DNA from: Pseudovirgaria hyperparasitica
Lineage: Eukaryota > Ascomycota > Dothideomycetes > Acrospermales > Acrospermaceae
Assembly: GCF_010093815.1 (NCBI RefSeq)
Contig: NW_022985549.1
Location: 2,629,494 to 2,693,493, forward strand
Reading direction: 5' to 3'
Length of the DNA stretch: 64,000 bases
Shown here: in pieces, positions 5,391 to 53,044 of the stretch
Position numbering within the stretch: the first letter of the stretch is position 1
Layout: the number at the start of each line of letters is the position of its first letter
Position numbers and translations under genes: made by a program
Notes under the pieces: model-generated
What the model was told of the DNA's origin: nothing
The model's input: only the letters and a program-made list of their open reading frames with translations
The model's database searches: none

Positions 5391-5399
5391 TATGCTAAG

Positions 5400-7150: not shown

Positions 7151-7169
7151 GCCATCGCTTTTATTATTA

Positions 7170-16480: not shown

Positions 16481-16540
16481 AAAGCAAGCCTACTAGAGTA
16501 AGGACTTTCACATTTGTCGTTTCGAGCTGTTGGGGGCAGC

Positions 16541-16678: not shown

Positions 16679-16683
16679 TCTAA

Positions 16684-27126: not shown

Positions 27127-27150
27127 TTATAATAATAATAATAATAATAT
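27127..27150. repeat. ATA trinucleotide microsatellite
   Basis: About seven ATA units sit in AT-rich RIP-mutated DNA just left of the LINE. Confidence 0.8.
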
Positions 27151-27368
27151 TAGTAAACTAGGTAGAGTACCACTCTATAGGCGCATGCCTCCTCTAGTCT
27201 AAGCTACTATATAAGAAGAAACCTACGAATAGGAAAAACTCCCTTATATCTATAACTACGCTCTATCTATCCTCTCATTCTTTATATATATATAGCCCTA
27301 GGGGCTACCCATAGGCCTATAGCCTATATTATAATGGTTTACCCTTAGGTAGCACGTGTAGATACGGA

Positions 27369-27403
27369 GATTATTAGTTAAGGGCTACCCTTAACTAATA
27401 ATC
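27369..27403. repeat. Palindrome copy 1 (LINE 3' region)
   Basis: A perfect inverted repeat with 16-bp arms (core TTAGTTAAGGG / CCCTTAACTAA) around a 3-bp centre CTA. It follows the LINE coding region near the element's 3' end. Both strands carry stops in all three frames within it. Confidence 0.95.
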
Positions 27404-27799
27404 GTGGTTCTCCTAGGGTTCTTCCGACGTATACCGGGGTTCTTCCGGTATATATTAGGCTTCTTCCGGCATATATATACGGGTCTACTAGAACTAGGGG
27501 AGAGGAAGGTATACGAGTATCTATTAGGTAATATCCTTAGAGTACTTATTAAGCTATCGCGTGATATTAGAGGTCCTCGTTATACGGACGAGGGCTTATC
27601 TTAGGGTATAGAGGCTAGAGTACGTCGCGAGGTAGTGGCGTATTATATCTCTCCGGCCGTAGTCCTTATACTAGGGAGATATATCTAGGACGCCTCTCTA
27701 GTAGAGGTAATATAGAAGACCTATAGCGCCTATTTGGGCTTAGAGGAGTATAGATGCTTAGGCCTTTATTAGCCCTTTATATATCTATTTACTTAGTTT

Positions 27800-30700
27800 C
27801 TTCTAAGGCCCTTAGATCTATTCTAGATACCTATCCTATTAGGAGGCCCACTAGGCTTTAAGTACCTCCCTCTATTTATTCTAGATCCACGACTATATAA
27901 CGCGGCTAAGCTCCTTAGGGCTCTATTAGCTTAGGACGGTATCCGGGTTATTTTAAACCTCCTACGCGGTCTGGCTCGAGTCCGCCTCTATATAGTATTT
28001 ATATTATACTCGAGTTTATTCTATAGTAGAGAGGGCCTAGTAATGCGCGCGGATACGTGTACGTAGTATAGCGAAGGTATATACCCTATCTCCTCTACGT
28101 TCTTATATTTATTATTTAGTAAAGTATATAAGTCTCTATATCTAGTAGAAGTCCTATATACTTATTATGTTTATCTCGCGTTAGAGAAGCGTCGTATTAG
28201 TAGCTTTATATATACTAGAGATAAGGCGGAGTATATGGTTTTATATAGACTTAAGCTTTACCCGCCAAGCTTATATAAGGGCCGTGTACTAGTACTCGTA
28301 TCCGTATATAAAGGCTAGGCGTACTAGGGAGACGTATAGCTGTCTCGCCTTATCCCGGGCTATTCCCTATATAGATACCGTAATCTAGCGTATAGCGGTT
28401 TCTATCTAGAGGGCTCTAGAGACGGCGTGTGCTACCTATGGTCCCTATTTTAGCTTATTATCGATTATAACGCCGAGTGCGCGTATGCTCTATGCTAGTA
28501 GTTCTATAAAGGCGTCGATTTAGGGGCGACGTGCCCCCTCCCTAGTAGCCTATCCTCCATAGTAGTTAATAAAGTATATAAGCTAGTATTTTTTAGGTGC
28601 GAATTTTACTCCATAGCGCTTTATCTACTAGATATATTTCTCGTAGTCTTATTCGAGTTATATATATATTCTACTAGTACTACTATCGACCGCGAGGAGG
28701 TATATATCATCCGTGTATCCGACTACCTCTATATATTCTATTCTCTAAAGGAGGTCTACTATAAAGAAGAGAAAGAGGATTAGGGAGATAGTGCTCCCTT
28801 ACGGGATGCCGTATACCGTCTTCTTATATTTGCTTTAGTATCCGGGGATATATATTTAAGTAGTCCTTTACGCGAGGAAGAACTATATAAATTATATAAT
28901 CCACTTAGGTATTCGCCTTATCCGGAGGTTATAGATAAGTCTTATATAGTTTACCTTATTAAACGCCCCTACTATGTCTAGGGAGAGTAGCGTAACGACT
29001 CGTCCTTATTTCTATGTAGTCTAGATAACCTCGAGGATATGTTAAATAGCTATAATTAGGGAGCTTTCTACCTTCGTCTTCTAGTTTACTAGGAGAAGGC
29101 CGTATACCTATACTACTATACTTATCTTCTTAGTAATCGTGGCTTCTAGTACCTTACTAAGGTAGGAGAGGAGGGCGATCGGCCTCTATCCCTTCGGTAT
29201 ATTTAGACTCTTCCCTAGTTTTAGGAGTATAACCGTGTATATAGTTTAGAAGCTCTATGGGTGGTATCCTATACGGGCGTACGCTCGGAATATATAGCCT
29301 ATAATCGGTAAGGTCGCCTATATAGTCCTCTTAAGGCATCGATTTAGAATTCCGTCTAGCCCGGGCGCTTTATTATTCGGGAGTGTCTTAATAGCGCCGA
29401 GTATATTATCGTCCGTGATTTCCCTAGGGATACTCACGGCTTCCGGGTATTCCGTGCCGTTAATATCTAATAGGTCTACGGGTTCTAGAAGAGGGAATAT
29501 AACCTCTTATAGGATCTCTATTTTCTCGAGGCTTATAGAGTATATCTTTTCTTAATATATAAGGGGGGGTATAAGTGGTATAGGTGTCGGGGAGGCGGTG
29601 CTTTTAGCCTATTTTACTATATACCATAGTCTAGTAGTATTACGTGTATATCTATCTATAACTATATACTACTATTTATGTCGCTTATTACGGAGGACCT
29701 TATCTCGTTATTTTCTCGTCTCTCTCCATTTATCCTACGCTTTAGATATACGGTTATAGTATACGCGTATATATAATCTCCGGACTTCTCGCCTATACTC
29801 TCGCACTTAAGGTATACTTTTCGGGTCTAGGGGTCTATATATTTAGTACGGCACGTGTTTATCTCTTACTCTCTAGTACGCCTATAGGAGTGTATTCACG
29901 GCCTGGTTAATGGCCGGGCCATTAGATACGTCGACTATAGACGGGTCTAGGATCATCGATTCTAGGTCCTTTAGGTACTTTTCCTAGTTAGTATCCTTCT
30001 ATAGCTATCGCCCTCGTTAGTCTTAAGGGGTGGATACGTCTATTATGGTCTCTATATATTTATGGTCGGAGTCTATCTATATAAGGCTTAGGCGGTAGTA
30101 TTAAGTCCTATTATAAATATATCTAGTAGCTAGGGTGAGGTCGAGTATAGATCCGCCCTTATCTTATTTATATTTTCGCTAGGTAATCTATTCTACTAGT
30201 ATAAGAAGGTATAGGAAGCCGTAGTATTAGGTATGTAGTTCTCTAGCTCGAAGCTCTTCGCGGGTGACGGTTAGTCTACCCCACTAGCTATAATAGAGGT
30301 TAAAGTCTCCTAGAAGGATGTGTTATCCTAGCTCGGTAGTACCCTTAAGCATGTTATCCGCCTAAAGCGATCGGTTCTAATTATATATATTATATATATA
30401 GAGGGGTCCGATATTCGTCTAGAGGTGTAGTATTATCCGGAGGTTATCCCGTTTAGTATATAACCATAATAAGAGTAGAATAGACTTATAGACATGGAAG
30501 AGGACTCTCCTCTCCGGTCCTAGGGGGTATATTATATAATATTCTAGGTGTATTATTGGTTTATTCGTCTAGTAGTATTTATATAGCTCCTATATAGCGA
30601 GTATTATAGCTCCGGTCTCCTCGAGGAGTATCGCCTAGTTCTTATATTTATACTATACGTTTACCTATATAATTAGGAGTGTGTCTTAGTCTCTTATTAG

Positions 30701-31000
30701 GTGCTAGGGAATATATAGGCCTATATATTTATTCCTCTAAGACGCGACTATTCTCGTGCGGCGGCGGCCTTAGTAATTCCTCGGGGCCGTTCTATTATTA
30801 GCTTTCTTAGGACGGTTTACTATTCCTAACTACTTCCTTATAAGGAGGTAGTCTATAGTAGTAGTATTATAGTAAAGAGAGGAACGGTAGTAGGTCGCAT
30901 CGTTTATAGCTACCTTGCTCCCTTTATCCGGATTAAGTAGATATATTCGGTAATCTATTTACGTTTCGCGTACGTAGCCGACCACGACGGGTACTTGCCG
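27800..31000 (-). pseudogene. LINE ORF2: endonuclease and reverse transcriptase (RIP-mutated)
   Basis: The N-terminal part is an apurinic-type endonuclease that would nick target DNA. The GDFN motif with following Trp-Gly and TREE residues near 30244-30310 is typical of Tad1/I-like LINEs. The reverse transcriptase follows: NNKAPGLDGI, then a PIALLS...SKVLEA block near 29190-29230, then SLDIVGAFNKVN. A C-terminal RNase H is usual in Tad1 elements, but I could not identify it with confidence at 27600-28000. Stops are frequent, so the frame cannot yield a full protein. Confidence 0.8.
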
Positions 31001-31099
31001 TTGTAGTTAGAGCACTTCGCCGTGTCCCTATCCCTCTAGCCCTCTTCTTATATCCCGTGGGGGCACTCCTAGGTACTATATTCTTATCAATACTACCTA

Positions 31100-32157
31100 T
31101 ATCTAGTCTTTTAGAAGCACCGCTATACCGTATATCTATATCCCTAATAGTTAAAGTACTATATTATCGCCTATACTCTATCCCATGGTTCCGCTATAAG
31201 AAGCTCCCCTTCTACTAGGAATCCCTCTTATATAATTTAATACGCGAGCGCGGGGTCCTTAAGCTCTACTATTATAGTAGAGTATGCCTTTAATCTAGTT
31301 TTAATCCCTTATATATTCTTCTACTATGCTCTTACGATCTTAATCCCTAGGTATTTTCGCTTATTTAACTATTCCATCCGCGTAATATCCTCTTCTCTAA
31401 TAACCTATCCGCTTACGGGTATAGAGTATACCTATATCGGGTATATAGCCGCCCTAATAGAGGCGCCTAGAAAGATACTACTAATCGCGTTTAGATTACG
31501 CGAGATGGTCTACTACACAATATTTATTATCGTGGTAAGTACTACTCCTCCTAGCGTGAGTTTGGCGGTAACGATGTTTAACTATATTCCCTTTTATTTA
31601 TTAATCTTACTTACTATGTCCTTTGGGGATACTTACTAGACCTATACTAGGGTGTCCTTATTCTAGATTACGACGCGTATACTATACGCCACGTCGCCGG
31701 TCTAGGGAGCCCGTAGTATAGCCTCTAGTGTTACTACTATTTATACCTATATACTAGGGCGCTTACCTTAAGTGAGTTCCTCCTAGATTCTACGTAGGCT
31801 AGCCTCTATTCGGTCGAGCCTACCCTCCGGTCCTCCTAGTTATATCTTCTTCTCCTTCTCCGTAATTCCCTTTAGATTCTAGATAAGGTCTTAGAATATA
31901 TATAGGAGGGTCTTCTAGCCCTCTCCGGCTTCCTTCTCTATACGTGCTACCTAGTAGTTAATGCGATCTAGGAGGGTTTCCCCTCTTAGGGTCCCCTTTA
32001 TTCCGTCTATCTATAGCGGCGTGCGCCTTTAGGTGTATTCTACGTTTTAGATAGATGTATAGTTACCCTTAGTAATATCGCTATATAGTCTTTTCTATCA
32101 TACCGGTAGGGGTATATCCGGTATATACCGGGGTATATCGGTGCCTAAGGCCGCCAT
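31100..32157 (-). pseudogene. LINE ORF1 (Gag-like, RIP-mutated)
   Basis: The frame begins at 32157 with MAALGTDIPRYIPDIPLPV, one base away from a palindrome that fills its 5' leader. Tad1-type ORF1 proteins bind the element RNA and end in CCHC zinc knuckles; here a zinc-knuckle-like region lies at the junction with ORF2 (near 31000). The middle of the frame carries many TAG/TAA stops, as expected for RIP at Gln and Trp codons. The boundary with ORF2 is approximate. Confidence 0.6.
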
Positions 32158-32158
32158 A

Positions 32159-32191
32159 TTTATTAGTTAAGGGCTACCCTTAACTAATAAA
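32159..32191. repeat. Palindrome copy 2 (LINE 5' leader, next to ORF1 ATG)
   Basis: The same palindrome with 15-bp arms and centre CTA. On the LINE's coding strand it ends one base before the ATG of ORF1 (32157). A stem this long touching the start codon would be expected to affect ribosome loading if it folds in RNA. Confidence 0.95.
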
Positions 32192-32410
32192 AGGGGGTTA
32201 GCGTATTAGCATTCTAGTAGCGTAGTCCGTGCCTCTATCTCCGTAAGGATTTTAAGAGGGTATATATATATCTTTACACGGCGATAACGTCTTGGTTTCG
32301 ACGCTATACGTACGTGCGTGTAGTAGTAGTTAGTATACTCGGTGTACTCTATCGATTAAGGTGTGTATCTCGCTGTATTACCCTAAATGGACCAAGTTAG
32401 CCTCTTAGGG

Positions 32411-35240
32411 ATGTAAAAGAAGTTTTTTAAAGTTATAAGTTATTAATTATAATATAGAAGCGGTTTAAACGCGACTATAAATACTACTAGTATACGCTTA
32501 AACATTGCCCGTATCTATTATATTACTAAAGTTATATATATAAGTAGGTTATAATAACCGAATACCCTAATAGACGTAAATTACTTATTAATTACCTTCT
32601 TTACTCGTTCTATAGAGGGTATACTAGTAAATATATCCTTTAATCTATATTCTATACACTCTTAATTAATAATATATAAGACTATCTAATTAAATATATA
32701 TTCTAATATACCCTTATATAGTTAATATAGAATATCTAGAGCGACCGCGTGGTATATATTAACTCTAGTAAGTAACTAGGTAAAATTATCTAATAGCTCT
32801 ATCTATCTACTAGAATACTAACTCTTAACTAATTAGTAAATATAATAGCCCTATACTACTAGCGCAAAAGACGTTAATAAAAATAATAAGATACTAGGTA
32901 TACTTATTCTATTATCTACCTTACTACTAGTATACTTACTACTATAGCTATTAGTTATTAACTTATAATATATATAGTAAATCTATTCCTATAACGATAA
33001 GTATATACGGAACTTCTATATACTAGTAATAGCTTCTCGTAGATACTATCGTCTGTTACTAGGGACTATATATATTAGACATGTATACTAATGGGATATA
33101 CCCGTGATAAGCACCTACTCCGGAAAATCTATAATATATAAAGCTAAACGCAGATAGTACATACGCAAGCCGCCATCGGCATATAATACTAATACTCTAG
33201 TACTCTATATAGCCTATAATACTATATAATAATTAGTATAGTTAACGACTCTATCATAGGCAGATATACAGACTAGAACTTTACTTATAACCTAATAGAA
33301 CATAAAGCAATTCACTACCATTTCTAGCTTAACTACTAGTAATAGAGTAAGTAGTAGAAATAATAGTAGACTCCTAGATAAGCGGACGTTTAGTAGTAGA
33401 TTATAAATAGATAGGTAGACTAGCTATACTACTCTATTACTACTATACTACTCTATTACTACTATAGTTAGTAAGGTTTATCTTATCTAAAGATAAAATA
33501 ATAGGGACAATAAAGGCACTATCCAGAATAGTAGCATATATATCCTACTAACTATCTACTATATAGGCTTTACTATACACCCGGTTATCTAAACTAGTAA
33601 ATTATTATATTAGCTTAAATATAAGCTTACTAGTAAATAGTTAGTATCTAAGGAGGAATTCTACTAACGTAAGCGGATCTCTATACTAGTATTTAACTAT
33701 AGTAGTACTAAATATATCGTAGCTACGCTACTAACTTTTGTATAGTATCCCTTTAGAGTAGTATATTAACTACTTATATATAATATTAGATTTTAGTATA
33801 AGAAGGTTAGAGGGTATAGTAGAAGTCTATTTAAGGATAGTAGTTAATTTATCGTATACTATATTTGAAATACTAAACTAATTTATCTATATTATAAGGC
33901 GCTCTATAAACTTACTATTAAATTAACCGAATTAGGCCTACTAAATTAGTTACTACTATAATAATAGACTATATATACTTACGCTAGACGGATTATTATA
34001 TCTACTCTAGTCTACTAGAATATATATACTACTCTCTTCTTCGAATATTTTTATTAAATATATAGTACTAGACGCTCTTATTACTATAGTTATAGTATTT
34101 CTACTATATATATTAGACTAATATACTAAATTAGTACTATGGCTACTAGTAACGCCCTCTATAGATTCTAGGTCTAAAATATAATTAGAGAATATAGTAG
34201 TATCTTTATATAGGGCCATATTAGTAGTAGAAGTATCTAATTCTATAGACTTAGACTTCTAATTAATACTCGGTAGCTAAATACTAATAGAGTAAACTAA
34301 AGAGTTCTATTAACTAATATAACTACGAGTACTAAAGCCGCGCTATAACCCGGTTAATAGTAGTAGCTATAGGCCTAATAGTTATAATAATAATAGTAAT
34401 ATAGTAAGCTATGCTTATCTATATAGTTCCAAGTTATAGTACCTACGGATTATATAGTATATACTACTAATCTTTCTACTATAGTATTAGTAGGAGACTA
34501 TAGTCTATAGTATCTTAAGGTATAGTTACTATAAAGAAAAAATACTATAGTATAATCATTAGTAGATAGTAATAATATAGTATATGGTAGATATTCTAGG
34601 CGTATACTAAAAGAAGTTAGGTGTAAGCCCGTTAAAAGCCCGATATATACCTACTAGCCTCTAACTTCTACCCGGCTCTTAGCCCCTTAATTCCTATACA
34701 CGCTTATATAAAATTATTAATAATAACGCGTAAGTATTACGCGTCTATATAAAATACTATATTAGTTTACGCCTAAACCTTTATCATATCTACTAGCTAG
34801 TTATTATTCTACTATCTAATATTATTACCTAGTAGATTACTAATCTATAGCTAATAAAATAATCTACTAATCTCTTATATATCTTCTCTATAGAATCTCT
34901 AATATAGAAGATAGTTAAGAAACTATCTAGCTACTATAGCGGTAATACTAATAGAAGATAATCTAGTAACTATAGTAAACTAAATAGAATAGGTAAACGA
35001 AGATATAATATAATATAGATATATATTAGTATTAATAATAGGGACTTATATAATAGCTATCAATATAAAATATATATATATATATATACCTAGCTTATCT
35101 CGACGTGTTTATTTATCTACTAATAAACTAGTAGTCTAGGTATACCGGTAGTAAATATAGTAGTAACGCTCTATATAGCTTAGACGTTATAGTAACATTC
35201 TACTATAATAGTAACTAGGGATATAATAGCCTTACGTCCT
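32411..35240. other. AT-rich RIP-mutated tract without recognised gene
   Basis: Dense stops in all frames and almost no CA/TG, except a patch near 33050-33320 that keeps more of them. Two 19-bp units, CTACTCTATTACTACTATA, stand in tandem near 33430-33470. An AT-dinucleotide run lies at 35070-35089. I recognise no domain. Confidence 0.5.
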
Positions 35241-35249
35241 CTTCTCTAC

Positions 35250-36960
35250 TATATTAGCTATCTAGCTTAATAGAAGAAGGTAGAGAAATAGTAGTAGAGA
35301 GGGAACTAACTATCTATAAAAAGAGACGGTTCTATAGAGATAGTCTCTAGCCTTATAAATGAGACTAGTACCTTATAATAATAGAGATTGTAATTACTAT
35401 AACGTTTTTAGACCGGTTACTACTAGTATTTAATTACCTTAATATATAGCTAGATAGTAGCCTAGATAGTTTTAGAATACTAGTATAATTAGCCTAGATA
35501 GCCGCTAGAGATATTAATCTTAGTAGCTACTATCTTAATTATAATTTATAAAATACACCTTCTATCTATATTATTACGCTAGTAAAGGAAGATATAATAG
35601 ACTTCTATTACTAACTCCTCTCTAGAGTTAGATAGATAGTATCTAAATACTAGAACTAGAAGATAGCTAAGAAGAGAAAAGCTAATATAAGTAACCTAAT
35701 ATATAATAACGCGTATATAGAAGTAAAAGTATATTACTTACATCATATTAGACGTATTACTAATTATTAGTATAATACTAGTATAACTTAGAAAATATTT
35801 ATAGGGCTAGTAGTAATTAAGACTCTAAAGTTAGTTCTACTATAGTCCCTAAGATTCCTTAGATTAAAGAAGTACTATAGTAGTATATTCTAACCGATTC
35901 TACTATCTATAATTACTATTATATATATTATAATAAGGCATGCCCTTAATAAATATAGTAGTAGGTAGGTACTAAACTTATTCTTTAGTTACTATAGATT
36001 TGCACGCTCTCTACTAATACTAGGTATATATATATATCTTTATCTAATTACGTACTAAATTATATAGAGGAATAGTAAGCGCTAAGCCTAATATAGTCGA
36101 ACTAGACGCCCTACCATATTAACTATATTTAAAAATCGCTAATAGTATTAGTATTTATAGTACTAATACTAATTAACCTAGATACTATATATATAAACCT
36201 ATATAAAGATAACCTAGATAACTTCTCTAAAGTAGATATAGATAACTTAGATAAGAGCAAGGAGTCTAAGCTATTAGGTAATATAAGTATATACTAAAGT
36301 TATAGAAGCTATATAGATACTAACTACTATAAAAAGGATAAGTTGGATACTCTAAACTAGTTAGATAAGTGCCTTAAATTATCTTATACGCCATTAGATA
36401 TGGGTAAGAGTTCTATACTACTAGTAGTAGCTACGGATAAGATTATACCATCTTAGGTATTAAGTATAGACCCGCTCTAAGTAACCGCGGGAACGGTAAA
36501 TAATAGTATATATACGTGTAGTATGAATAAGTCTATTACTAACTTATTATCCCTAGTTATAGCTACCTTAACTAGTAGTCTATCTACCCCGACTAATACT
36601 TAAATTAAAATAAAGTTAGATGGTGGCGGACGTTCAAGTCGGGTCTTTAACCTATATATAAAGAGTATATACTTTTAAGAGAAGTCGGATATTAGTATAT
36701 AACTAGAGAACTATATAGACTACTATAAGGCTAAATAGATAATATAAGGAGAGAATCAAAATAGTAACTAGAAATATAGAGGGAAGTATCTAGTAGAAAA
36801 AAAGGTTATTAAAGGTAGTTCTAGATAAGAATACCTTTTAATAGATAAAGGATACCGCCTAAAGGTAGAAGAAAGGAAGGTCTACTATATTTTATTATAT
36901 ATATATAGTCGGAGAGAGCTTAGAATAGTACTATTTAATTTAAGTTCCTAGTCTAATTAA
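35250..36960 (+). pseudogene. RIP-mutated coding relic of unknown family
   Basis: A plus-strand register with fewer stops than its neighbours can be followed in pieces, for example a Lys/Arg-rich stretch near 35660-35720 and an Asp/Lys-rich, low-complexity stretch near 36170-36420. No catalytic or binding motif survives that I can name. It lies left of LTR family B and may be part of an older element. Confidence 0.3.
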
Positions 36961-37142
36961 TTTTAAACCTCTACTCTCTATTATATATTATCTTTCTAGT
37001 ATTAAATTTAAAGACTATAATTAAATATACTAAAGATATAATTTAGAATAATAAGATATATAGAGTTATAGAGATACTTTAGATAAAGATATTACTTTAG
37101 AAAAGAGACTTCTATTAAAATAGATAGAGTATATAGAGTAGA

Positions 37143-37370
37143 TATAAGAATAGAGTAATTGGATAGTAGTATAGCTAGATAGAATAATAGGGTGTATTCT
37201 ATTATAGAACGAATTACTACTAAACCCTTTTAGTAGAAATCTAAGAGTATATATATAAAGGGACGCCAATCTATTTAGCACGTAACCATTTACCACCTAT
37301 TACGCCACCGTCTAACTAAGTTAGCTAAGGTATATATAGATCGAGTTATACCTAGAGCTAAGTCCTAATA
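37143..37370 (-). repeat. LTR, family B, second copy
   Basis: This 228-bp unit is the same length as the solo LTR at 22674-22901 and aligns to it along its whole length, mostly with transition differences. The 5-bp flanks do not match, so it is not a simple solo LTR. On the minus strand it is directly preceded by a purine-rich tract (AAAGAAAGAAGATAAT, 37371-37386), as a 3' LTR would be. Its body would then lie to the right, interrupted by element 2. Confidence 0.8.
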
Positions 37371-37692
37371 ATTATCTTCTTTCTTTAGAAAGCTACCCTT
37401 AGCAATCTAGATTATTATCTATCTCTATATTTCTATTCTAAGCCTTATAAGACCTTAGTCGTTCTCTATACTTTATCTTAGATATATATAGATACTAGCT
37501 AATCTAAGAATTATATAAGCGTTTTTCTAATAAACTAGATTTTATCTATTCTAAATCCTTATATAGATGGAATTACCTAATTAGGCCTAGCGTATTACGT
37601 AATATAATTAGATAAGCCTAGGTAGTATCTATATTAAAATCTTTTCTTAGAAATATTCCTTTCCTTAAAAAACTTCATAACTTATTATAGAG
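37371..37692. other. Stretch between LTR B and element 2
   Basis: AT-rich RIP-mutated DNA. It begins with the purine-rich tract next to LTR B and ends at the AGAG target duplication of element 2. It may be the 3' end of a minus-strand element that resumes at 49136. Confidence 0.4.
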
Positions 37693-38064
37693 TGTGGTGA
37701 GCTATCGCTACGTGTGTCCCTTTTGTAAATGGCTATGTTCCTAGTATAGTAGTCGCGACGAACTCACAAGTATCTCTCCTAGGTATTATGAGTTCTCTTT
37801 GAACGTACGACTTCTTATTAGTTCTCTTTTATAATAGGACGGGTCTATATAATACTCTTAATTAATTCTTTAATAGCTAAGCCTAATAATTAATATCTAT
37901 AGAGGCCCATGAACGTAAGAAAAGGTCGAATAGTCGAATATTAGTAATGGGGAAAGCGCGCCGAGCAGAATGACCAAGGAAAACGCCCTCCTTAAATATA
38001 TAATGAAGCTATATAATCGAGCTAGGGATATATATATATAGGGCTATAGGAGCGGCCTTCTATA
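37693..38064 (-). repeat. 3' LTR of element 2
   Basis: A 372-bp copy matching 48760-49131 without gaps. On the plus strand it starts TGTGGTGAGC, preceded by AGAG. The short open frame seen in the other copy (48950-49132) lies inside the LTR and is not a gene. Confidence 0.92.
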
Positions 38065-38210
38065 TATACCTCCCCGGCCTATAGAACTACTACTCTTAGT
38101 AGTATAGTAACCGTGTAAGAAACCGTGTAAAGAACGCCTAAAAGAAAGACCTTAATACGAATAAAATGCGCCCCTAGTAAACCTCTCGGTGCGGGTAAAC
38201 CTTAGCCCGG
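38065..38210 (-). other. 3' untranslated segment of element 2
   Basis: It lies between the extra frame's palindrome and the 3' LTR. On the coding strand it ends in a GGGGAGG-type polypurine tract next to the LTR, the usual primer site for plus-strand DNA synthesis in LTR elements. Confidence 0.6.
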
Positions 38211-38243
38211 ATTATTAGTTAAGGGTAGCCCTTAACTAATAAT
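38211..38243. repeat. Palindrome copy 3 (after the extra frame of element 2)
   Basis: A perfect inverted repeat with 15-bp arms and centre TAG, the same sequence as copies 1 and 2 but in the other orientation. It follows the end of the dioxygenase-like frame. Confidence 0.95.
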
Positions 38244-38249
38244 TAGGTA

Positions 38250-41200
38250 GGTTTCTAGGCGTCTAATCTTAGTACTCGAGATCACGAGCCAGCTTCTAAA
38301 GAATTATATCGCTTATCTTAGAGAGGTTAGATTCCTCCTCGTCGGATAGTTCGTTAGGCCTCTTCTATCTATAGAAGTTCTCTTTAACGTTATTTAGGCC
38401 CGCGTTAGACTCGAATTTCTTAAAATTAATTAGCCGCTTAGCGGCCCGCGCCTCGTTAAATTCCTTCTAGAACGACCTATCCCTATAGACTAGCCTTTCC
38501 TACCTTACTATTTTCTTAAAGGTCTCTATAAATACTCTTAAGCCCTCCTTAAACTAGGCGTCTACCTTAGCTTTAAGTTATTAAGGACTTACGTTAAGCC
38601 ACGTAGCTACCTCTTCTTTTACCTTCTAGCTATTCTATCTTTTACGGCTGACTAATACGTTACTAACGGCGTTAAAACTCGGGAGTTAAACTACGGCTAG
38701 GAAGGTAAAAGGAATTGCGCTATATTTATTAGAAAATCCTAACGGAGACGTAGGCCCCGGAGTTAAATTCCTATAAGCTACTACGAGTTATTCCTATGTG
38801 CCCATTTTAGGCACTTCCATTATCATGTGATTAGGGCCAATCGCGACATACCATAGAAGTATCGTACGTCTTCCACCCTTTATAGGACTCTAGGCGCCGT
38901 ATATTATTAGTAGGCTAGAGATACGCACTTTAAGGGACTAGTAGGGGACCGGGACGAAGGGACTAAATCGTTTCTTATCGTCCGTATTATAGATCTTATC
39001 GTTAATAGCTATAATTATACCGTTTCGATTAACCCCCTCGCGGAGCTTGGCCTTTAACCACCATTTATTTAAGAACTTATAGGAGCGGGGAATGATTATA
39101 GTATAGTTATTACTTCGTTCGTCGTCGAGACTAATACTCCCCTAGATTATATTAAACCCGTGTCTATTACTAGGATTAAGGATTCGATTAATAGCGTTAT
39201 CAAGATGCTTAAAACCCGTCTTATCGCCCCTATCCTAGGACTTCGCATAGTACGGGTACGAGATTAGATAGTAGTTAAGATCGGGCCGAAGAGCGATATA
39301 GGTGAGCTAGTAAAGTAGGTATTACCTAATAAACTATTAGATATAGGAGTGGTATATAGTTCGTAGCTAGCCGTAGTTCGATTTCTTATTAAACATGCGC
39401 TAGTAGTACTTATATATATTAAATTCATCCCTCGCGAGTTCTAGAATACTCTTATTAAGTATGGAGATCGTCTTTTTAAGTGGCTCGAAGAGCCCTTTAA
39501 TGTTAATACTTCCGGTACGTTCCCACTTATTAAAGAGTTACCTACCTATTCTACTATCCTCCTTCTAAATCATAAATATAATACTAGTAAGGATGGTTTT
39601 AATATTAATAACTTACTTTGGGGTCTCTAGGGCCTAGTAACAATAGACACCTAATACCTCTATCGGATAAGGTAACCGCACGTACTTCGCGAACTAGATA
39701 TAGCAGTCCTTATAAACTTTAAGGGCCCCCACATTATCTCTAAACTTATATACTATTTTAAGTCTCACTACTAGGTTTAAGTAGAACACGCTAACGAGTA
39801 TATTATTCTTTCTAGCCACGTCTTAGTAATGCTTATAGTAGACTTTATACGGAATAGCCATGTTACCTATCTACGCTTTCTAGCGTACTAGTAGGGCCAT
39901 TCCCTTAATGCTCGTGAAATTCTTCTTTAATAATATAGCTACCTTAAAAGTCTTCGTCACTAAAGGCGCGTATTAATACTTCTTAGGCTTATCCTCTTCC
40001 TCGACTAATGCTATTATCTTAGGGTATAAACTAAGAATAACCGGGGATTATCGTGTAGACGCCCCTAGTAATTACTAAGGGCCGGTAGATAAGGCATGTC
40101 CACGAGTAGGTTTTATCGGCATGGCCGTAATAGATACTAAAGAGGTTCTCGTATAGCCCGGTAAGGGACGTATACTAGTAGTAGTAGGAGGAATACTTAC
40201 TTTAAATAGACGACTAGCTTCGAAGAGACGACGTGCTACTAAACTAGAAGGCGTGCTTTATGGAGGGGACTTTACCATAGGCGTTATCTATACTAGTTTT
40301 AGCGATGGTAAGGTCTAAGGCGGAGGCAATATACTTATCTCTTTAATTTATAGGTAGTATTCAACGGGCCTATAAACTATTCTACTTATCCGTAACTATT
40401 AACTAGCGGGGATAATAAGTCCCGTCTTATTATAGAACGTTAGTTTATTTTATCGGCTAGGGTAGTTCGAGAGTTACTAGAGAGATAGACTATCCTTATT
40501 ACTATCGCTAGCTAGGGCGGTATCGATATTAGAGCTCTAAAGATATACCTTAATTCCCCTTCCCTTCTATCCCTGGCCGATTCGGGACCATAGGGATACG
40601 TTTAACTAGTTCCTTACTCTTACCCATATCCATATTCGTAAGAGCGCTACTAGCTTTTCTATAAAGTTCTATGTTTACTAGAGCTATCCGAGGGCGGATT
40701 AGAGTAACTAGCTATTATTATTAGGGAGGTCTTTTCGCTAGTTTTATAGGATTATATTTTTGGCTTTTAGGATGCGGGAGTTAGTATCTCTTCCACGATA
40801 AATTATCTCATAGACTTCTTTCGGAATAGAGGAGTTAATCTTTACCTTACTATACCCTATTACGGCTCCTACTTCCTAGAAGAGGTTAACTATACTACTT
40901 AAGAGCTATTCTATAAGACTAGTAATATAAAGGAGATTATTAAACGTATCTAGAATATAGTCCTATCACTCTTACGGGTCCTAGATAGTAATAATTCGGT
41001 TAATAGTAGACTTATTTACTTCTATAGCTTCTATAGCCTATCCGTGCGGAGTAGTAGATGGCCTTAATACCACGATAGCTATCGATAGCCCTACTTTAGC
41101 ACTTACGACTCTTAACTAGGACCGCGTCTATCTTATTAGTACTTAACGATCTTATAACTTTTCACGGGTAGGTGTTTTCTTTTTCAGCGGGGCTATTATT

Positions 41201-41290
41201 ATTATTGGTTCTATCGGCGAGTTACGTTCTAAGGAGAGGTAGTTAAGCGAGGCGGAAGTAGAGAAGGAGGTTTTATTAATTAAGGAGGTA
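38250..41290 (-). pseudogene. Extra frame of element 2, 2OG/Fe(II) dioxygenase-like (fossil)
   Basis: A minus-strand frame of about 3 kb lies between integrase and the 3' LTR. Its central part has the layout of the 2-oxoglutarate/Fe(II) double-stranded beta-helix fold: an HxD block (KHLDNAIN, HLD at 39199-39207), then a segment with SISLDDERSN near 39120, then about 100 codons after HxD a segment (38866-38901) with the spacing of the distal His-x10-Arg pair seen in phytanoyl-CoA-type enzymes, followed by an LLWYVA strand. The N-terminal third is Ser/Thr- and Lys-rich and linker-like; the C-terminal part is charged. No known Gag, Pol or envelope motif occurs. A captured oxygenase acting on nucleic acid or protein is possible, but the substrate is unknown. 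The frame is broken. Confidence 0.5.
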
Positions 41291-41418
41291 TAGAGAGGTA
41301 TAAGAGGGAAGAGTTATATACTATCTTAAGTTCTCTTTTTATGCCTCCTCGAATACCGGGTATATAGTAATTTTTATAAATGATCCTTACTAACGGCCGT
41401 AGGCCCGTATACGTGTCG

Positions 41419-41519
41419 AATCTATGAATGAATATATACTAGGTATATAGGAAATCTATGAATGAATGTATCTACCGGGTATATGGCGGAATCTATAAAT
41501 AAATAGATACCGGGTATAT
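41419..41519 (-). repeat. Tandem repeat, about 34-37 bp, three units, inside element 2
   Basis: Three units start AATCTATGAATGAAT and contain the core ACCGGGTATAT. They lie in the spacer between integrase and the extra frame. The reverse complement resembles the tandem repeat at 25273-25410. Confidence 0.75.
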
Positions 41520-41899
41520 TCTTATCCTTATAAGACTTCCTATAAGTATCTTTTTCTCCTATACCTCCTTCTTCTTTTCTTCCTTATTAGTTTCTAACGG
41601 GGCCCGTTCTATAGTAACGAAATAGGCCTTCGATAGGTAGGCTTCGATTACACGACTAGTTTTAATATATAGTAGATAGAATTCGCGTAAACGCCATTAT
41701 GTCTTCTTTCGAGCATTGCTTACTTTAATAATAAGTTTTATTATTTTATAGTAATAATAGAGTTTATTATCCTCTTTCGATAATAGAGTTTATCGTCCTT
41801 TTTCGATAATAGAGTTCATCGTTATAAGACTACTTTTATAAGTATCTCTTCCCTTCTTAAAAAAACTTCTATCCCCTAGAAGGAGATGTCGATTCTAGG

Positions 41900-44800
41900 G
41901 AAACGTAAATATTCTTCTCTATTAAAGTCTTACGAAGTAGGAATTACCACTTCTACCCGGGTTCGTGTAGCGTCGTCGAGGTATTCCGTAAGTTATTTAT
42001 AATAGTTTTCCTTATCGCTACTCTCCTTATATTCCTTAGTAATTCTTCTAATTAGTAGTTATAAGGGCTCGTCGTGACTCTCGTTACTTATATTTCTCAT
42101 GAAATATTTCTTTAACCTATGGCTAGGAAACGTCCCTCTAAGCATAGCTCTATTAAGCTCCGCGAGCTTATAAGTATAATTAAACACGGACTAGATTCTA
42201 TATAGCCCCCTCTAATACTACCTTAGCTTCCGCTCTATATTCTTCTATCGCTATAAGTTATATAGGAGGATAATCGTATCGACTAGTAATGACTCTTAAC
42301 GAAGGTAATAGTCGTTATTCCATGCCTCTCTCGATTCCTTACGCGTTCGTATCGCGTGGGCATGGGCCTCCTTAAGATTCTTAGATCTTCTCTTAAGTTA
42401 TCTAGCTCGAAGAGTAAGTAAGTCGGACGTTAATTACACCTCGTCCTAAGGGAGTATTTAGAGCGACTCGAATTCGACTTTAATAGGTATAATTAGTTTA
42501 TGGCCGAGCACGAGATATACGGTACTATACCCTATACTAGCACGTGTCGTTATTCTATCTACCTAGACGACTATATAGAGGTGGCCGGGCTAGTTCTTGA
42601 ATCCGCTATTAGTTATCTTCGCGAGAGTATTAGCGAGTAGTATAAAACTTCTCTCGATAATTCTATTTACTCGGGGATTATATATAGACGTAACCTTCTA
42701 ATAAATTCTATAGAGTCGGAGGAGCTCCTCTATGGCACCCATATTTTCTCTACTACCGTTATAGGTGATTTTAGAAATAATTCCGTATCTATAGATCACG
42801 TTCTTAAAGAGGAACTTTACGATAACTATAGACGTGGCCGCCGTACATGCCTCCGCCTTAGTCTATCCGCTTAGCTATTCTCGTATAGATACTACTTTAC
42901 TATACCCTATAGAAGGTAGTAGCGTCGTTACGTCTAAGTATATTCTTTACTAAAGAATAGGCGTTATAACGTGGTGGAGCCCTTTATTAAGACCTCTAAG
43001 GAGTTTACTTCGTCGTTAATATTCGTTATAGGTTTTCACGTACTATCGCACGTCTCTACGTATACCTATCTACTAATACTTATCCTTAATCCTTCCGAGG
43101 GTCCCTTCGCTACCTCTATAATCTATCTTATCGTGAGTGGTAGTAATTATACGCGCCCTAGTATTCGGATCCTTAATTACTCGTGTGTATTAGCGATACT
43201 TATCTCCTCTCCGCTAGAGTATTTAGTTATATATAAGGAACTTTAGATAGTTAGTTATAAAGGCCTTATACGCTCGGTTAGTTAGGTCGGTTAGCCTCTC
43301 GAGTATAGTAAGGTACTTCGTAATCCTCTACTATTTATCGCTATATTCATCTATTAAGGGAGACTTAATGGCGGTATAGTCGAGTATCTCTATTATATAA
43401 TCTCTCCCGCTAACGGGCTTAATTAACGACGTCTCTAGTACGTCTATATATAGAGCCATATCCACGAACTCGTCTAGGTTAAAGGTAGAGACGTCTAGTG
43501 GTTCTTCTCCTTTATATATCCGTGAGATACCGTTGGCGACTACGTTACGCTTCCTAGGTACGTACCTAACTATAAAGTTCTATAGCTAAATCCACGCGAG
43601 CCACCTAGTAATAAGCGCCCCTAGTAAGTTAGTTACGGTATAGTTAATTTAAGCGACTAGAGTATTCGCGTCTATTTCTATAATAAAGTACGTGCTATAG
43701 AGGTATTACCGGAACTTCTATAACGCGTAGAGGAGGGCTCGGTACTCTAGCTTCACGGTGTCGTAGTTTCTCTTAGCTTTTAACTATATTCCTCTATTAT
43801 ACCGCGATAGCTAATATTTACGATTCTCGTTCTCCTATATTAACGTAGCTCCCTACCTAACGTTACTAGAGTCTACTACTAGAATTATATCTCCCGTACC
43901 TACCCCGTACCGTAACGTTATTAGTATAGGAGTAGTAGTTAGAGCTATCTTTAGCGCGTCTATCGAGGTCTACTCCTTAGCTATCTACTACTAGGCCGAT
44001 TTATTCTTTAATAGTATAAATAGTAGCGATATAATAATAGCGTACCCAGGGATCTATATCCGGAAATATATATAAACGCTAAGGAAGGCTCGTATATTTA
44101 TCGTGTTTTTATAGGGTTTCTAGTCCCTAATAGTAGTAACCTTTTTATTACTCGGTCGCCTCCCTTTAATATCGTAGACGTATCCTATAACGTTAGCGGC
44201 TTTAATATACTACTAAGTCTTCTTACTACTTAGGGCGTATCCGGCGCGCTCTATATCCGCGAGAACCTTATCTACGTTAATTAAATGTTCTAGGATATAC
44301 CTATAAATTCTAGGTAGGGCCTCCTTAGAGTTATATTTCGTCATAGGTCCTTTAATGCCTAAGTTATCTAGGAATAGTAGAGCCCTCTCCGGGATGTATT
44401 CTTCTATAATAGTTAATATAATTCTAACGAACTAAGCTACTAAATTAGTGGCCCCTTAAGGTAATATTATCCCGTATAGTAATTCTAGGGGTATTATAAA
44501 CCCCGTTAAGTCTCGGTAATGCTCTACTAATAGAATCTAATCGTATCCTAAGAAGAAGTCGGTAAACGTTAAGACGGCCATCTCTATAAAGTACTCTAAG
44601 AACTCTTTATATAAGGGCGGCGTGGCCGTATTATAAATGGTAACTCGGTTAATTTCTATCGCCGAATTAATTAACCTATAATCTCGTTCCTTATTAGCTT
44701 CCTTCTTCTTTTCTATAAGAAAATAGGCGTTTTAATAAGGACTACTATAGGGCTCGAGCCTTCCGCTATTAAGACGCTCTTTTAGGATCGTAAGTACCTT

Positions 44801-45470
44801 TCTATAAAGGGCTCTAGAAATATTAAAGTTCTTAGCCTACTATACCTTATATTCTACCGTTCGGATCTCCTGCGGAGGTACTATCTCTTTATTAAATTTA
44901 CTAAGGTATGAGAATTCCTATACTAGTACTTCCTCGCGATATAATAAGATTATATATAGTAACTTAAGTTCTACGGGACGTAGCTCTATTCTAATCTTTA
45001 GCTAACTTATATATAGAGGCGTTAGACGTGTTCCTAGCGGGATAGTTACCCTTTAAGGCTCTATTAGCCTATTAAACGCGTTAAGGCCTAGGTGGACGGC
45101 TAGAAGAAGTGCCTACTATGCGATTACTCGTTTACGCTAGTCTAGATACTCTAATAGATTCCTAGGAACCTTTCGGTAGGCTTCGGAGTCATCCATAGAG
45201 TATACTTTAACTCCCTTTCTTTTATATATGGTAGCTATACTAAATCCCTTTAATACCCCGGATGAATACCGTCTTTAGAGGCCGGTGGAGCCTACTATAA
45301 GCTATTCTATTATTATGCCTTATTTATATATAAAGGTAGTATACCTTACCGCCGTAACTAGGGCGGCTAAGTCATCTTTTCTTAATAACCGAGTAATATT
45401 TTTAGGCCGGATTTTCTCGGAAAGTAACTCTATATAACTTATTTCTATATCTATATAAAAATATAGTCTA
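41900..45470 (-). pseudogene. Pol region of element 2: RT, RNase H, integrase (fossil)
   Basis: Reverse transcriptase spans about 45300-44300 on the minus strand and includes the FLDNLGIKGP block near 44370, the position of the catalytic YxDD-type box. The connection and RNase H region follows to about 43500. Integrase spans about 43400-41900, with core segments near 42700-42960 and the NPRVNRIIERSF-type block near 42640-42680 that follows the catalytic glutamate region. I see no chromodomain. The small plus-strand open frame at 42971-43246 is antisense shadow. The region is broken many times. Confidence 0.85.
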
Positions 45471-45510
45471 TCCCCTTTATTAGTGGGTTTACCGGACCCT
45501 ATTTAGTGCG

Positions 45511-45545
45511 GATTATTAGTTAAGGGTAGCCCTTAACTAATAATC
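45511..45545. repeat. Palindrome copy 4 (between protease and RT of element 2)
   Basis: A perfect inverted repeat with 16-bp arms and centre TAG. It separates the Gag-protease part from the RT part, where LTR elements usually have a continuous frame or a short overlap. Confidence 0.95.
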
Positions 45546-45559
45546 TAGCTTAACTCCGG

Positions 45560-48220
45560 CTTCTGGTAACATGCTCCGCTATATAGTTAGTCTCTAGCTA
45601 TGGAGTTACCCTCCTTCTCTAAGACTAGAATATACTCGTCTAGACTAGTTTTAAAGGTTATACGTTCTTATCTATATACGGAGTAGACTATTAAGAGTAC
45701 TTACCTAGAGGCTAACCTCTATACCGTAAGTAAGGCCTATCTAGTATATAGCTCCCCTAGAATAAGGTTATAATTAAGTTCGCTATATATAAATATCGAA
45801 GTAGCTATAACGATCCGACCTATACGGATAGGGTATTACTATACTATTCCTATGAATAGAGTACTATACTAAGTAGCGCTAACTAAACTCGAGTTCTTTA
45901 TATATAGTAGAAGCGAAGATATCGCTAGCCTAAGACGCCTCGTAGTATCTAGTCGAATGCTATTTACCTATGCGCTACTATTAAATAGTACTATACTAGT
46001 CGCCCTTTTAGGACTAACTTCCACAGGGTACCTCGGATACTCGGCTACTAGCCTTACTATCCCTTCCTTAAGCTAATTAATATCTCGTTATATAATAGCT
46101 ATCTCTATAGTATAGAGGGATACTAATATATTAAGTTTATTTATCTCGGGAGCCATAGTATAGTCGTTTCTTCCTTTCTTCTTAGCTCTCTCTTCTCGAG
46201 CCTCGTGGACCTCCCTAGCTATAAAGTCGGGGGCGCCCTTCTTAAATACCGCACGACGTAAGTCGCTATTAAGGCTTAATAGTTTACTAATAGTAATGTT
46301 TATAGTTGTCCCTAGAACGCGCACCAGCCATGCTTCGCTAGCTTCTATGCTTAGCCGCTATCCTTCGCGTAGATAGTTATTAAGCTTAACACCTCGGATA
46401 CGTGCCTTTTAACTAGGATTTAGGCTATCCCCTTTATCTATCTTATCCTCCGGCGCCGTTAGCTCTTATTTAGACGTTCCCTAGTTACTACTCTTCTCGC
46501 CGTCCTCCTATTCCTTAATAATCCTTATATACTACCCTTTATACATTCCGCGGAGACGGGCGATCTTTCTTTTCTTAGTATAATTAGGTATACTCTTCGT
46601 GATCCCCCTTCTAGATATTACGAGTATAGCGGGCTCTTCTAGGGCTATCTCCTTATGGATATATCTATTACTAGCCACGTTAAAGCGTTCGTGGAATTCT
46701 ATATATCTATCTTTCTTACTCTCGGGCGACGTAACTTCTTCTTCTAAATTACTATCCGCTAAGGCCTAGTAGGGACCCTTCGTAGGTTTTATACTAATAC
46801 TATATACCGGTACTCCCTATAAAGCGTTAATATTTACTATAGACGTAGAAACCTTTACTCCTCCTCCGTACTAGCTTAGGCCGTTTTAAACCGTTACTAT
46901 ATAGTTCCGGATAGCTTATAGAGTAGCTTATAGCCCTACCGAGGAGGGTAGTAATAGAATTTCTTCTCCGTTCGCCCTAAAACGCCCTTGGAATACTCGT
47001 ACCCCGTTAATATTTAGTAATCCGTCTCTAATATATCCTACTATCTCCGGATATCTATATATTAGGTAATCCTCTCTATATATAATGTATATAATTAGTC
47101 TTCGAGGCCTATCCTAGGCTATAACGCCTTCTTAGAAGTCTCAGGTAGAGATATATTCTCTATTCTATATATAATTCTATGGATAAACTTACGTTAGTTC
47201 TATAGGCATGCCTTATACTTAGAGATATACTAAAAGATTTAGCCTTCGCGCCTACTAGTTAATAATAGCCGAAAGTAGCTTAGGTTCGTACTTCTTAAGG
47301 GATGGGAATAAGGGATTAGAGGTAAAGTAGGACTTTATCTTAATTAACGTGAGGTCTAGTTTACTAAATCTCTCTACTATCTCGTTAAACTTATCCGATT
47401 CTAGCGCGATATATACTATAACTAGAGAGGGGTAGTTAAATTTATTAGTTCTTCTTTCTTTATATAACTACTCTTCTAAGCCGGTCTTCTTACTCTCTAT
47501 CTTTAATTTATGGTATATGGCTATAGCTAGCTCTTATGCGGCTGAGTACTTATTAATATAAGCTAGTTCCTTAAGTGCTCTGGCCTTTCGTGATACGAAG
47601 CCATAGATAATTACCTAGTCATAACTATGTGCTTCTATCATGAGTTAACATTTCTCTATAGCCCGAGTCTTAAGACTATTAGGCAGCCCTTCTAGGAAGA
47701 GCTCTATTCGCGAATATAAGCTTAGACTTCCTTTAGCTATAAGTTTCTCCGTGATAATATAATACCGGGAGTAGTATATAGAGAGAGAGTAGGATGGGTC
47801 TACTTTAACTATTTCCACGTATTTTCGGATAAAGTAGATGGTGCCTTCCTCGAGAGTAGAGTTAAATAGAGAGAATTCCTTTAATAATTCTTTACGTAGT
47901 ATAGCCTACTACTATTTCTAAAACCTACTTATTCCTTTAATGGTAAGACGGAGATAGTCCTCGTAGTATAATGGTAGGGAGGTTATCTTCTTATTAGGCG
48001 GAACTTTATAGTTTATATATATGTCCTTATACTTCCGAAGGAAGGCTGTAATATTTATTCCTTTAAAGCGCTCAGGGGCTAGAATAGATAGAGATACTAT
48101 CCTTCCTTATCGCGCAAATGCTACGAAGAAGTTAAGCATCTCTCTACGAGTTACTAGGTCGTTATTTTAAGCTTCTATCGCACTATTACTAGTAGTAGGT
48201 GTGCTAGTAGAGACGCTAGG
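45560..48220 (-). pseudogene. Gag and protease region of element 2 (fossil)
   Basis: The capsid-like part covers about 48150-46400, with RREMLNFFVAFAR near 48130 and a body typical of Ty3/Gypsy Gag. The stretch 46324-46088 stays open for 78 codons and includes REVHEAREERAKKKGRND, a basic linker. A retropepsin-like region follows at about 46080-45650. The assignment rests on order and general resemblance to fungal Gypsy Gag. It is broken in many places. Confidence 0.65.
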
Positions 48221-48227
48221 GGTAAGG

Positions 48228-48257
48228 TTATTAGTTAAGGGATTACCTTGACTAAAG
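48228..48257. repeat. Imperfect palindrome copy 5 (before Gag of element 2)
   Basis: TTAGTTAAGG and CCTTGACTAA face each other across a short centre, with one mismatch of the RIP type. It resembles the other four palindromes but is shorter and could be independent. Confidence 0.5.
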
Positions 48258-48759
48258 GTTAGCCTAATGCGTCTACCTATAACACCTATTATCCCTTCTC
48301 TATATTAACTAATCCCTTTATAAGGTAAACTATTACTATCGTCTTTATCGATATAAGGTTCACGGTATCCTACTTATATTATTATCTTCGTGTGAGGCGT
48401 TCCTAAAGTAGTATACTCGTGTAGCCGTGTTTATGAATAACAGCTATAGTAGTACTAAATAGGTTATATTTATCGTTTTTGAACTCTTCTTTACTACTTT
48501 ATCTAGCTCTATTTTATATTCTATTCCCCTAAGACATTTTCGAGTCGTGCTATCACCCGTGTTAGCATACGTATGCTTTTTATAGCTACTTTTAAGAGGC
48601 TAGCCCCTAGCGACTCCGGACTCCCTGTTTTCTAGACTCGTGGCTTCGATCTAGTAAGTCTAGACTACCTTATTAGGCACGCCATATACTTCCCCTAAGC
48701 TAGTTTCGGAGTTCTAATCTCCCCCTATAAGTTCGTAGTCTGGGTACGACCTCTAAAAT

Positions 48760-49131
48760 TATAGTAAGCTATCGCCACGTGTGTCCCTTTTATAAATAGC
48801 TATATTCCTAGTATAGTAGTCGCGACGAACTCATAAGTATCTCTTCTAGGTATTATGAGTTCTCTTTAAACGCACGACTTCTTATTAGTTCTCTTTTACG
48901 ATAGAACGGGTCTATATAATACTCTTAATTAATTCTTCAATAGCTAAGCCTAATAATTAATACCTATAGAGGCCCATGAACGTAAGGAAAGGTCGAATAG
49001 TCGAATATTAGTGATAGGGAAAGCGCGCCGAGTAGAATGACCAAGGAAAACGCCCTTCTTAAATATATAATGAAGCCATGTAATCGAGCTAGGGATATAT
49101 ACATGTAGGGCTATAGGAGCGGCCTTCCACA
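48760..49131 (-). repeat. 5' LTR of element 2
   Basis: A 372-bp copy matching 37693-38064. Its coding-strand start is TGTGGAAGGCCGC, and AGAG follows on the plus strand at 49132. By position, the primer-binding site would lie just left of 48760; I could not match it to a tRNA. Confidence 0.92.
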
Positions 49132-52792: not shown

Positions 52793-52797
52793 CTTAA

Positions 52798-53040
52798 TAC
52801 CCGCTCTAATTTCTATAGAGAATTACTAAAAGTATCCTAGCTTCTAGTATTCTATTAGATAACTAGTCTTATAGTATCTATAGTATAGTATAGTCTAAAT
52901 TATACTAACTATCTACGTTATTCTATAACGATTTCTTATAATCTTTACGCTATAATAGAGAATTAGCTTTATTCTCTCTTCTAGCTTTATATAAGATTTT
53001 AAAGTTAAATATTAATATCTACTTAGTCTAATATACTTAT
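52798..53040. other. Element 3 sequence between the two TRIM-like copies
   Basis: AT-rich RIP-mutated DNA of element 3's pol region left between the two insertions, short enough that the inverted TRIM copies could fold together. Confidence 0.5.
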
Positions 53041-53044
53041 TAGC

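What the first reader, a model, noticed from the sequence alone, without database searches (positions are those of the whole stretch)
27369..48257. A bidirectional all-frame-stop palindrome shared by a LINE and an unrelated LTR element, at reading-frame boundaries
Four perfect 33-35 bp palindromes (27369-27403, 32159-32191, 38211-38243, 45511-45545), and one imperfect relative (48228-48257), share the arms TTAGTTAAGGG / CCCTTAACTAA around a 3-bp centre. In the LINE they sit one base before the ORF1 start and after ORF2. In Gypsy element 2 they sit before Gag (imperfect copy), between protease and RT, and after the extra frame. Every strand and frame meets a stop inside the unit. The arms stayed perfect although neighbouring DNA is saturated with RIP transitions. 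Two unrelated retroelement classes sharing the module at the same kind of place suggests either a tiny mobile palindrome tolerated only in spacers, or a functional hairpin (translation reset, transcript end, or target site). I know of no named fungal module like it.
Basis: partly seen in the sequence, partly recalled or inferred. Interest (0 to 1): 0.78.

Follow-up and report, generated by a model that had tools for sequence, protein, structure and literature searches.

The report
Retroelement hairpin palindrome sharpened by RIP
A 29-35 base palindrome is built into two unrelated families of fungal jumping genes and appears to be copied with them rather than to move alone; part of its odd look (stop codons in every frame) probably comes from the fungus's own mutation defence, and what the hairpin does is still unknown.

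Summary
The palindromes are real and far above chance: 5 matches in the window, 0 expected; 576 places in the 35 Mb assembly, control 0. They do not appear to move alone: the 100 listed of 418 exact copies with centre CTR all fit a LINE group (before ORF1, end of ORF2) or one Gypsy family (P2, P3), 88 by sequence context or P2-P3 pairing and 12 by element spacing only. A decayed third Gypsy copy lies near the gag start. The arms lack CpA, TpG and CpG, so RIP cannot change them now. Five of 39 LINE 3' sites carry C or G in the middle of one arm where most have T/A, most simply read as incomplete RIP; so the 'all-frame stop' look is partly a RIP product. Gypsy P2 is not a demonstrated frame boundary: one frame is least interrupted on both sides. 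Between one LINE A and one LINE B copy the arms do not differ while surroundings show 7-13% transversions, but both copies were picked for intact arms. Best reading: an inherited hairpin of LINE RNA at coding borders, copied into a Gypsy element, then RIP-polished. Function is inferred, not shown.

The parts
27128..32427 (-). LINE (non-LTR retrotransposon), here called subfamily B; RIP-decayed; ends in an (ATT)n tail
   Evidence: Homology to LINE copies L061/L062 spans about 27128-32427; RVT_1 match of the related copy L062, 1.3e-10; tail
32159..32191 (-). LINE 5' palindrome, 33 bp, one base before the ATG of ORF1 at 32157 (ORF1 start inferred)
   Evidence: 23 of 23 ORF1-start blocks on contigs C1 to C7:879k have an exact copy at the same offset of 30 nt
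27369..27403 (-). LINE 3' palindrome, 35 bp, at the inferred end of ORF2
   Evidence: of 39 LINE 3'UTR blocks on C1 to C7:879k, 30 have it exactly, 5 with 1-3 changes, 4 lack the left arm by deletion
37697..49127 (-). Gypsy element 2 with LTRs 37697-38060 and 48764-49127 (93.7% identical)
48228..48257 (-). imperfect copy G1, near the start of gag
   Evidence: weak fold; same context in L051 and L060
45511..45545 (-). Gypsy palindrome P2, 35 bp, between gag/protease-like and RT-like coding regions
   Evidence: 18 of 18 Gypsy hits on C1 to C7:879k (40 scored in all) have an exact copy
38211..38243 (-). Gypsy palindrome P3, 33 bp, about 150 bp before the 3' LTR
   Evidence: 14 of those 18 P2 copies have a listed exact partner 7.25-7.32 kb away

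Best explanation
The palindrome is a fixed, inherited inverted repeat of a LINE group that also sits in one Gypsy family. It is copied with the elements and does not move alone (shown for the copies listed). In RNA it folds into a 15-16 bp stem with a 3-nt loop (predicted). In the LINE it lies against the ORF1 start and at the ORF2 end, and it is found at both ends of diverged LINE copies, so it most likely acts as an RNA stem-loop of the LINE transcript at the two borders of the coding region, affecting translation or RNA recognition (inferred). The Gypsy copies most likely arose by copying from LINE RNA or cDNA into an ancestral Gypsy, for example by a template jump, followed by duplication inside that element (inferred; the direction is not shown). 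RIP then turned remaining CG/CA/TG sites in the arms into TA, giving the sharp, A+T-rich, stop-filled form seen now (supported by a few variant copies).
For: 576 places against control 0. All 100 listed of 418 exact CTR-centre copies fit LINE or Gypsy sites: 71 by flanking blocks, 14 by P3 spacing from an assigned P2, 3 by sequence (L091-L093), 12 by element spacing read from the and 71 lists. No exact copy with a base other than A before TTAG or without TATTAG. Copies with unusual preceding bases, 10 of 10, are LINEs; half-arm copies, 10 of 18 fetched, are LINEs. Constant offsets: 30 nt to the ORF1 block in 23 of 23; 67-68 nt to the 3'UTR block in the 30 of 39 that have it. Eight diverged 5' sites chosen by their ORF1 block: 6 exact. 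One LINE A against one LINE B copy: transversions 32/239 in 5'UTR, 349/4743 in coding region, 27/251 in 3'UTR, no difference in the 56 arm positions. Hairpin energies -21.3 to -22.3 kcal/mol, z -4.5 to -6.7, for the four perfect copies. Variant arms L097-L100 and L102.
Against: The two LINE copies were picked from exact-palindrome places, so their intact arms are partly a result of that choice. No covariation exists to test pairing. Four of 39 LINE 3' sites have lost the left arm by one identical deletion, so the 3' hairpin may be dispensable. The imperfect G1 copy folds weakly (z -0.6). P2 lies inside a continuous frame, which does not fit a pure coding-border role. A hairpin this close to a start codon would normally hinder scanning (general knowledge). 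Which state of the variant arms is ancestral is inferred, and three of the five variants still stop in all forward frames.
Confidence: 0.4

Rival explanations
1. Neutral hitch-hiker: an inverted repeat that arose once in one family, was copied into the other by chance and is carried along without function; youth and lack of RIP targets keep it perfect.
For: Gypsy copies show 0 transversions in P2 flanks and 0.0013 per site in P3 flanks among 7 copies each, so they look young; arms lack RIP targets; an identical 3' deletion in 4 of 39 LINE sites.
Against: Arms exact at 23 of 23 ORF1 blocks and at 6 of 8 diverged 5' sites, at constant spacing, and identical between a LINE A and a LINE B copy whose surroundings show 7-13% transversions (copies picked for intact arms).
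Confidence: 0.28
2. DNA-level host binding site: the dyad is bound as DNA by a host protein (transcription factor, remodeller or insulator), and both families carry it because it helps or protects their expression.
For: Near-perfect dyad symmetry of about three helix turns; the centre occurs either way round at one LINE site; two unrelated classes share it, which suits a host factor. Palindromic motifs linked to transposable elements have been reported for Isw2 in Magnaporthe (PMC11481914, passages seen).
Against: No exact copy was found outside the two element groups among those examined, so no host-gene sites support it. The Isw2 motif letters were not seen, so no match can be claimed.
Confidence: 0.2
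3. Translation stop-restart signal that resets ribosomes between reading frames.
For: An ATG one to a few bases after the LINE 5' copy; one of 7 Gypsy copies has ATG 13 nt after the P2 core, the other six ATA. Stop-start coupling with nearby RNA sequence or structure is known in SART1 and victoriviruses (PMC5972666, PMC5902531, passages).
Against: No copy within 3 mismatches lies between LINE ORF1 and ORF2, where coupling would be needed; the 3' copies have no known frame after them; gag and pol share a least-stopped frame across P2; part of the stops are probably RIP products.
Confidence: 0.08
4. Independently mobile mini-palindrome, like mobile palindromic repeats of fungal mitochondrial genomes.
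For: Very short, perfect, high copy number, found in two unrelated element classes.
Against: The 100 listed exact copies fit fixed places in two element groups; no free copy was found.
Confidence: 0.04

Closest known systems
Stop-start translation signals (non-LTR element SART1; victoriviruses) - PMC5972666, PMC5902531, passages seen
   Same: An RNA signal near a start or stop codon in a retroelement or a fungal RNA genome
   Different: Those lie between two cistrons with overlapping or adjacent stop-start codons; here copies flank the LINE coding block, none lies between ORF1 and ORF2, and P2 is within one least-stopped frame
3' stem-loops of LINEs recognised by their reverse transcriptase - PMC5135761, search listing and abstract start only
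   Same: A stem-loop in the 3' part of a LINE transcript
   Different: Here it lies about 240 nt from the 3' end, is repeated before ORF1, and is shared with an LTR element
Mobile palindromic repeats of fungal mitochondrial genomes - PMC7218506, search listing and abstract start only
   Same: Short repeated palindromes
   Different: Nuclear, at fixed places inside two retroelement groups, no sign of independent movement
Chimeric LINE retrogenes from template jumps in Magnaporthe - PMC2104539, search listing and abstract start only
   Same: A way in which a fungal LINE reverse transcriptase can join unrelated RNAs
   Different: No chimera junction was identified here; invoked only as a possible route of transfer

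Membership tests
Independently mobile mini-palindrome | copies at independent positions outside any one host element | tested here: not met
   100 of 100 listed exact copies (of 418 with centre CTR) fit LINE or Gypsy sites, 12 of them by spacing only; 0 exact copies with other immediate flanks
Independently mobile mini-palindrome | target-site duplication and empty orthologous sites | not testable with these tools
   no related genome held
Stop-start reinitiation signal | lies between two successive cistrons | tested here: not met
   no copy between LINE ORF1 and ORF2 within 3 mismatches; P2 within one least-stopped frame
Stop-start reinitiation signal | supports translation of the downstream frame | not testable with these tools
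   needs a reporter assay
LINE 3' recognition stem-loop | stem-loop close to the 3' end, needed for reverse transcription | tested here: inconclusive
   about 240 nt from the (ATT)n tail; 4 of 39 sites lack one arm; need not tested
LINE (element that carries two of the copies) | reverse transcriptase domain, simple-repeat tail | tested here: met
   RVT_1 1.3e-10 in the related copy L062, frame read with X at stops; tail
LTR retrotransposon, Gypsy type (element that carries the other three) | paired LTRs and Gypsy-type pol order | tested here: inconclusive
RIP-mutated DNA | loss of CpA/TpG, gain of TpA | tested here: met
   observed/expected CA 0.32, TG 0.25, TA 1.64 in the window

The most novel reading that the evidence does not exclude
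A cis-acting hairpin module shared across retroelement classes: the same 29-35 bp palindrome has been taken up by LINE and LTR elements because one host or element factor recognises it at coding-region borders, so that unrelated retroelements exchange one regulatory part.
Probability: 0.22. Interest if true: 0.7.

Novelty: new variant of a known kind. Interest (0 to 1): 0.42.

Why it matters
If functional, it would be a clear case of one small cis-element shared by LINE and LTR retroelements, and a testable handle on how such parts pass between classes. It also warns that RIP can help turn a palindrome into an apparently designed all-frame-stop unit, so stop content in RIP-mutated DNA should not be read as function.

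Tried and rejected
Mobile palindrome: rejected on the confinement of the listed copies. One nested insertion explaining the sharing: rejected, each family has its own palindromes in many copies. Wider LINE-Gypsy homology: besides the palindromes blastn gave one 28-bp match at 2.3e-5 (window 30377-30404 against 47071-47098), which is an AT-rich near-repeat, and only matches of E 0.05 or worse beyond that. Known RNA family: none at gathering threshold in 26800-49400. Same palindrome in viral or prokaryote contigs: 0 exact matches in each. Published arm sequence: 5 papers hold the 11 letters, unrelated by title (listing only); paper searches on palindromes in retroelements or fungi listed nothing that I recognised as this palindrome, and one search returned no paper. 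Pfam on stop-to-stop pieces of LINE and Gypsy: two sub-threshold matches to unrelated families, taken as chance. LINE reading frames by stop counts: too decayed to fix ORF limits. The host species was not identified.
Full report
Observation. The window holds four exact copies and one 2-mismatch copy of TTAGTTAAGGGNNNCCCTTAACTAA; 100 shuffles give none. The perfect lengths are 33-35 bp as reported. In the 35.0 Mb assembly there are 576 places with up to 2 mismatches and none for the reversed control; 418 places have exact arms and a centre that reads CTG or CTA on one strand (225 + 193).

Which elements carry it. The element at about 27128-32427 is a LINE read on the minus strand: a related copy, L062, gives a reverse transcriptase match (RVT_1, 1.3e-10), and copies end in an (ATT)n tail. 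The element at 37697-49127 has LTRs that are 93.7% identical and reads on the minus strand; its protein pieces look like a Gypsy pol by eye, but gave no Pfam match to RT, RNase H or integrase. Apart from the palindromes, blastn gives one 28-bp AT-rich match between the two elements at 2.3e-5 and nothing else better than 0.049. Another stretch of the window with paired 139-bp direct repeats, 3830-16681, perhaps a second LTR element, has no match within 3 mismatches.

Distribution. I compared the 100 exact copies listed (C1 to C7:879k) with blocks searched for without the palindrome, though the block patterns were drawn from copies that carry it. 23 of 23 LINE ORF1-start blocks in that stretch have an exact palindrome at the same offset of 30 nt; 30 of 39 LINE 3'UTR blocks have it at 67-68 nt; 18 of 18 Gypsy pol-start hits have it at 40-41 nt. 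The searches found 185 ORF1 blocks and 198 3'UTR blocks, of which 100 each were listed, all without mismatch, and 40 of 64 Gypsy candidates were scored; places on further contigs were not compared. These three sets explain 71 of the 100 exact copies, P3 spacing from an assigned P2 explains 14, and three were fetched and are Gypsy P3 (L091-L093). The other 12 I assign by spacing only, from the lists: three pairs 7,300-7,302 apart (Gypsy), five 4,789-4,817 from a LINE site, and one at LINE distance from a 3'UTR block. No exact copy has a base other than A before TTAG or lacks TATTAG. Copies with unusual bases before TTATTAG, 10 of 10, are LINEs, several of them more diverged. Of 18 half-arm places, 10 were fetched and are LINEs. 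Of 33 copies preceded by AG, 21 sit beside listed LINE ORF1 blocks and one lies in L078, a LINE; I did not fetch the other 11. So the palindrome travels with two element groups; copies elsewhere among the unlisted places are not excluded.

RIP. The window is strongly RIP-mutated (CA 0.32, TG 0.25, TA 1.64 of expectation). The arms contain no CpA, TpG or CpG. Among 7 copies each, Gypsy flanks differ almost only by transitions (transversions 0 at P2, 0.0013 at P3), and RIP-poor flank columns differ by about 2%. Those copies were found by their intact arms, so the arms could not differ in that set. LINE flanks in the same call show more transversions (0.03-0.16), partly because the flanks run past the element ends. 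Perfect arms are therefore not surprising in the Gypsy. Of the 9 of 39 LINE 3' sites without an exact palindrome, four have lost the left arm and five (L097-L100, L102) have 1-3 changed bases, each with C or G in the middle of one arm where most copies have T or A; L099 has a transversion beside it. The same kind of CG/TA difference is visible in the flanks, so incomplete RIP is the simplest reading, though the ancestral state is inferred. As sequenced, all five stop in two of three reverse frames; forward, L099 and L100 stop in two and L097, L098 and L102 still in three. The window's imperfect Gypsy copy keeps a C that is T in L051 and L060 and stops in two of three forward and three of three reverse frames.

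Reading frames. In the LINE, an ATG (ATA in many copies) follows the 5' palindrome at fixed distance, and the frame that holds the reverse transcriptase can be followed by eye to the 3' palindrome in L062; stop counts alone cannot fix the ORF limits. For Gypsy P2 the same frame is least interrupted on both sides within 1200 nt: stops shared by all 7 copies are 11 against 27 and 27 upstream, and 11 against 43 and 38 downstream. A frame boundary at P2 is not shown. P3 lies about 150 bp before the 3' LTR. There is no copy within 3 mismatches between LINE ORF1 and ORF2.

Conservation and structure. Between one LINE A copy (L062) and the window's LINE B copy transversions are 32/239 in the 5'UTR, 349/4743 in the coding region and 27/251 in the 3'UTR, and the two palindromes differ only at the centre. 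Both copies were picked for exact palindromes, so this comparison is biased. Less biased are the 23 of 23 above and eight further diverged 5' sites chosen by their ORF1 block: 6 exact, one with one change and one with two. This suggests constraint but does not prove it. The four perfect copies fold strongly as RNA (z -4.5 to -6.7); the imperfect one does not (z -0.6). With arms so uniform there is no covariation test. Against need for the hairpin, four of 39 LINE 3' sites share one deletion of the left arm.

Interpretation. The account that I prefer is an inherited hairpin of a LINE group, copied into a Gypsy element, and polished by RIP. Its role as an RNA element at the coding borders, and the direction of transfer, are my inference. 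The main rivals are a neutral hitch-hiker and a host DNA-binding site. Stop-restart signals (PMC5972666 and PMC5902531, passages seen) resemble it only loosely. Template jumps by a fungal LINE are reported (PMC2104539, search listing and abstract start only). I saw no description of this palindrome in the listings of the searches made; the library is partial.

Noticed in passing
L094, L095, L096, L101 (LINE 3' sites): Four LINE copies share one identical deletion removing the left arm and centre of the 3' palindrome between CCC repeats; either a sub-lineage or a recurrent event.
   Followed up: partly
window 38244-42060, minus strand: About 3.8 kb lies between the last long pol-frame piece of Gypsy element 2 and palindrome P3, with pieces of a further frame; one 67-aa piece tested had no Pfam match.
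   Followed up: no
window 3830-16681: Paired 139-bp direct repeats 12.7 kb apart, perhaps LTRs of a second, less decayed element, without the palindrome.
   Followed up: no
window 51797-55688: A repeat whose relatives flank the LINE copy L062 on both sides; the two flanks meet and overlap by about 5 bases at window 54382-54386, as if the window held the empty site of such a LINE insertion.
   Followed up: no
LINE 3' sites L002, L004, L006, L008, L025: The central base of the palindrome is T in one copy (L004) and A in the other four at the same site, as if the short hairpin could invert.
   Followed up: no
window 824-1504: Open frame that looks by eye like an FMN-dependent dehydrogenase, probably a host gene at the edge of the repeat island.
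   Followed up: no
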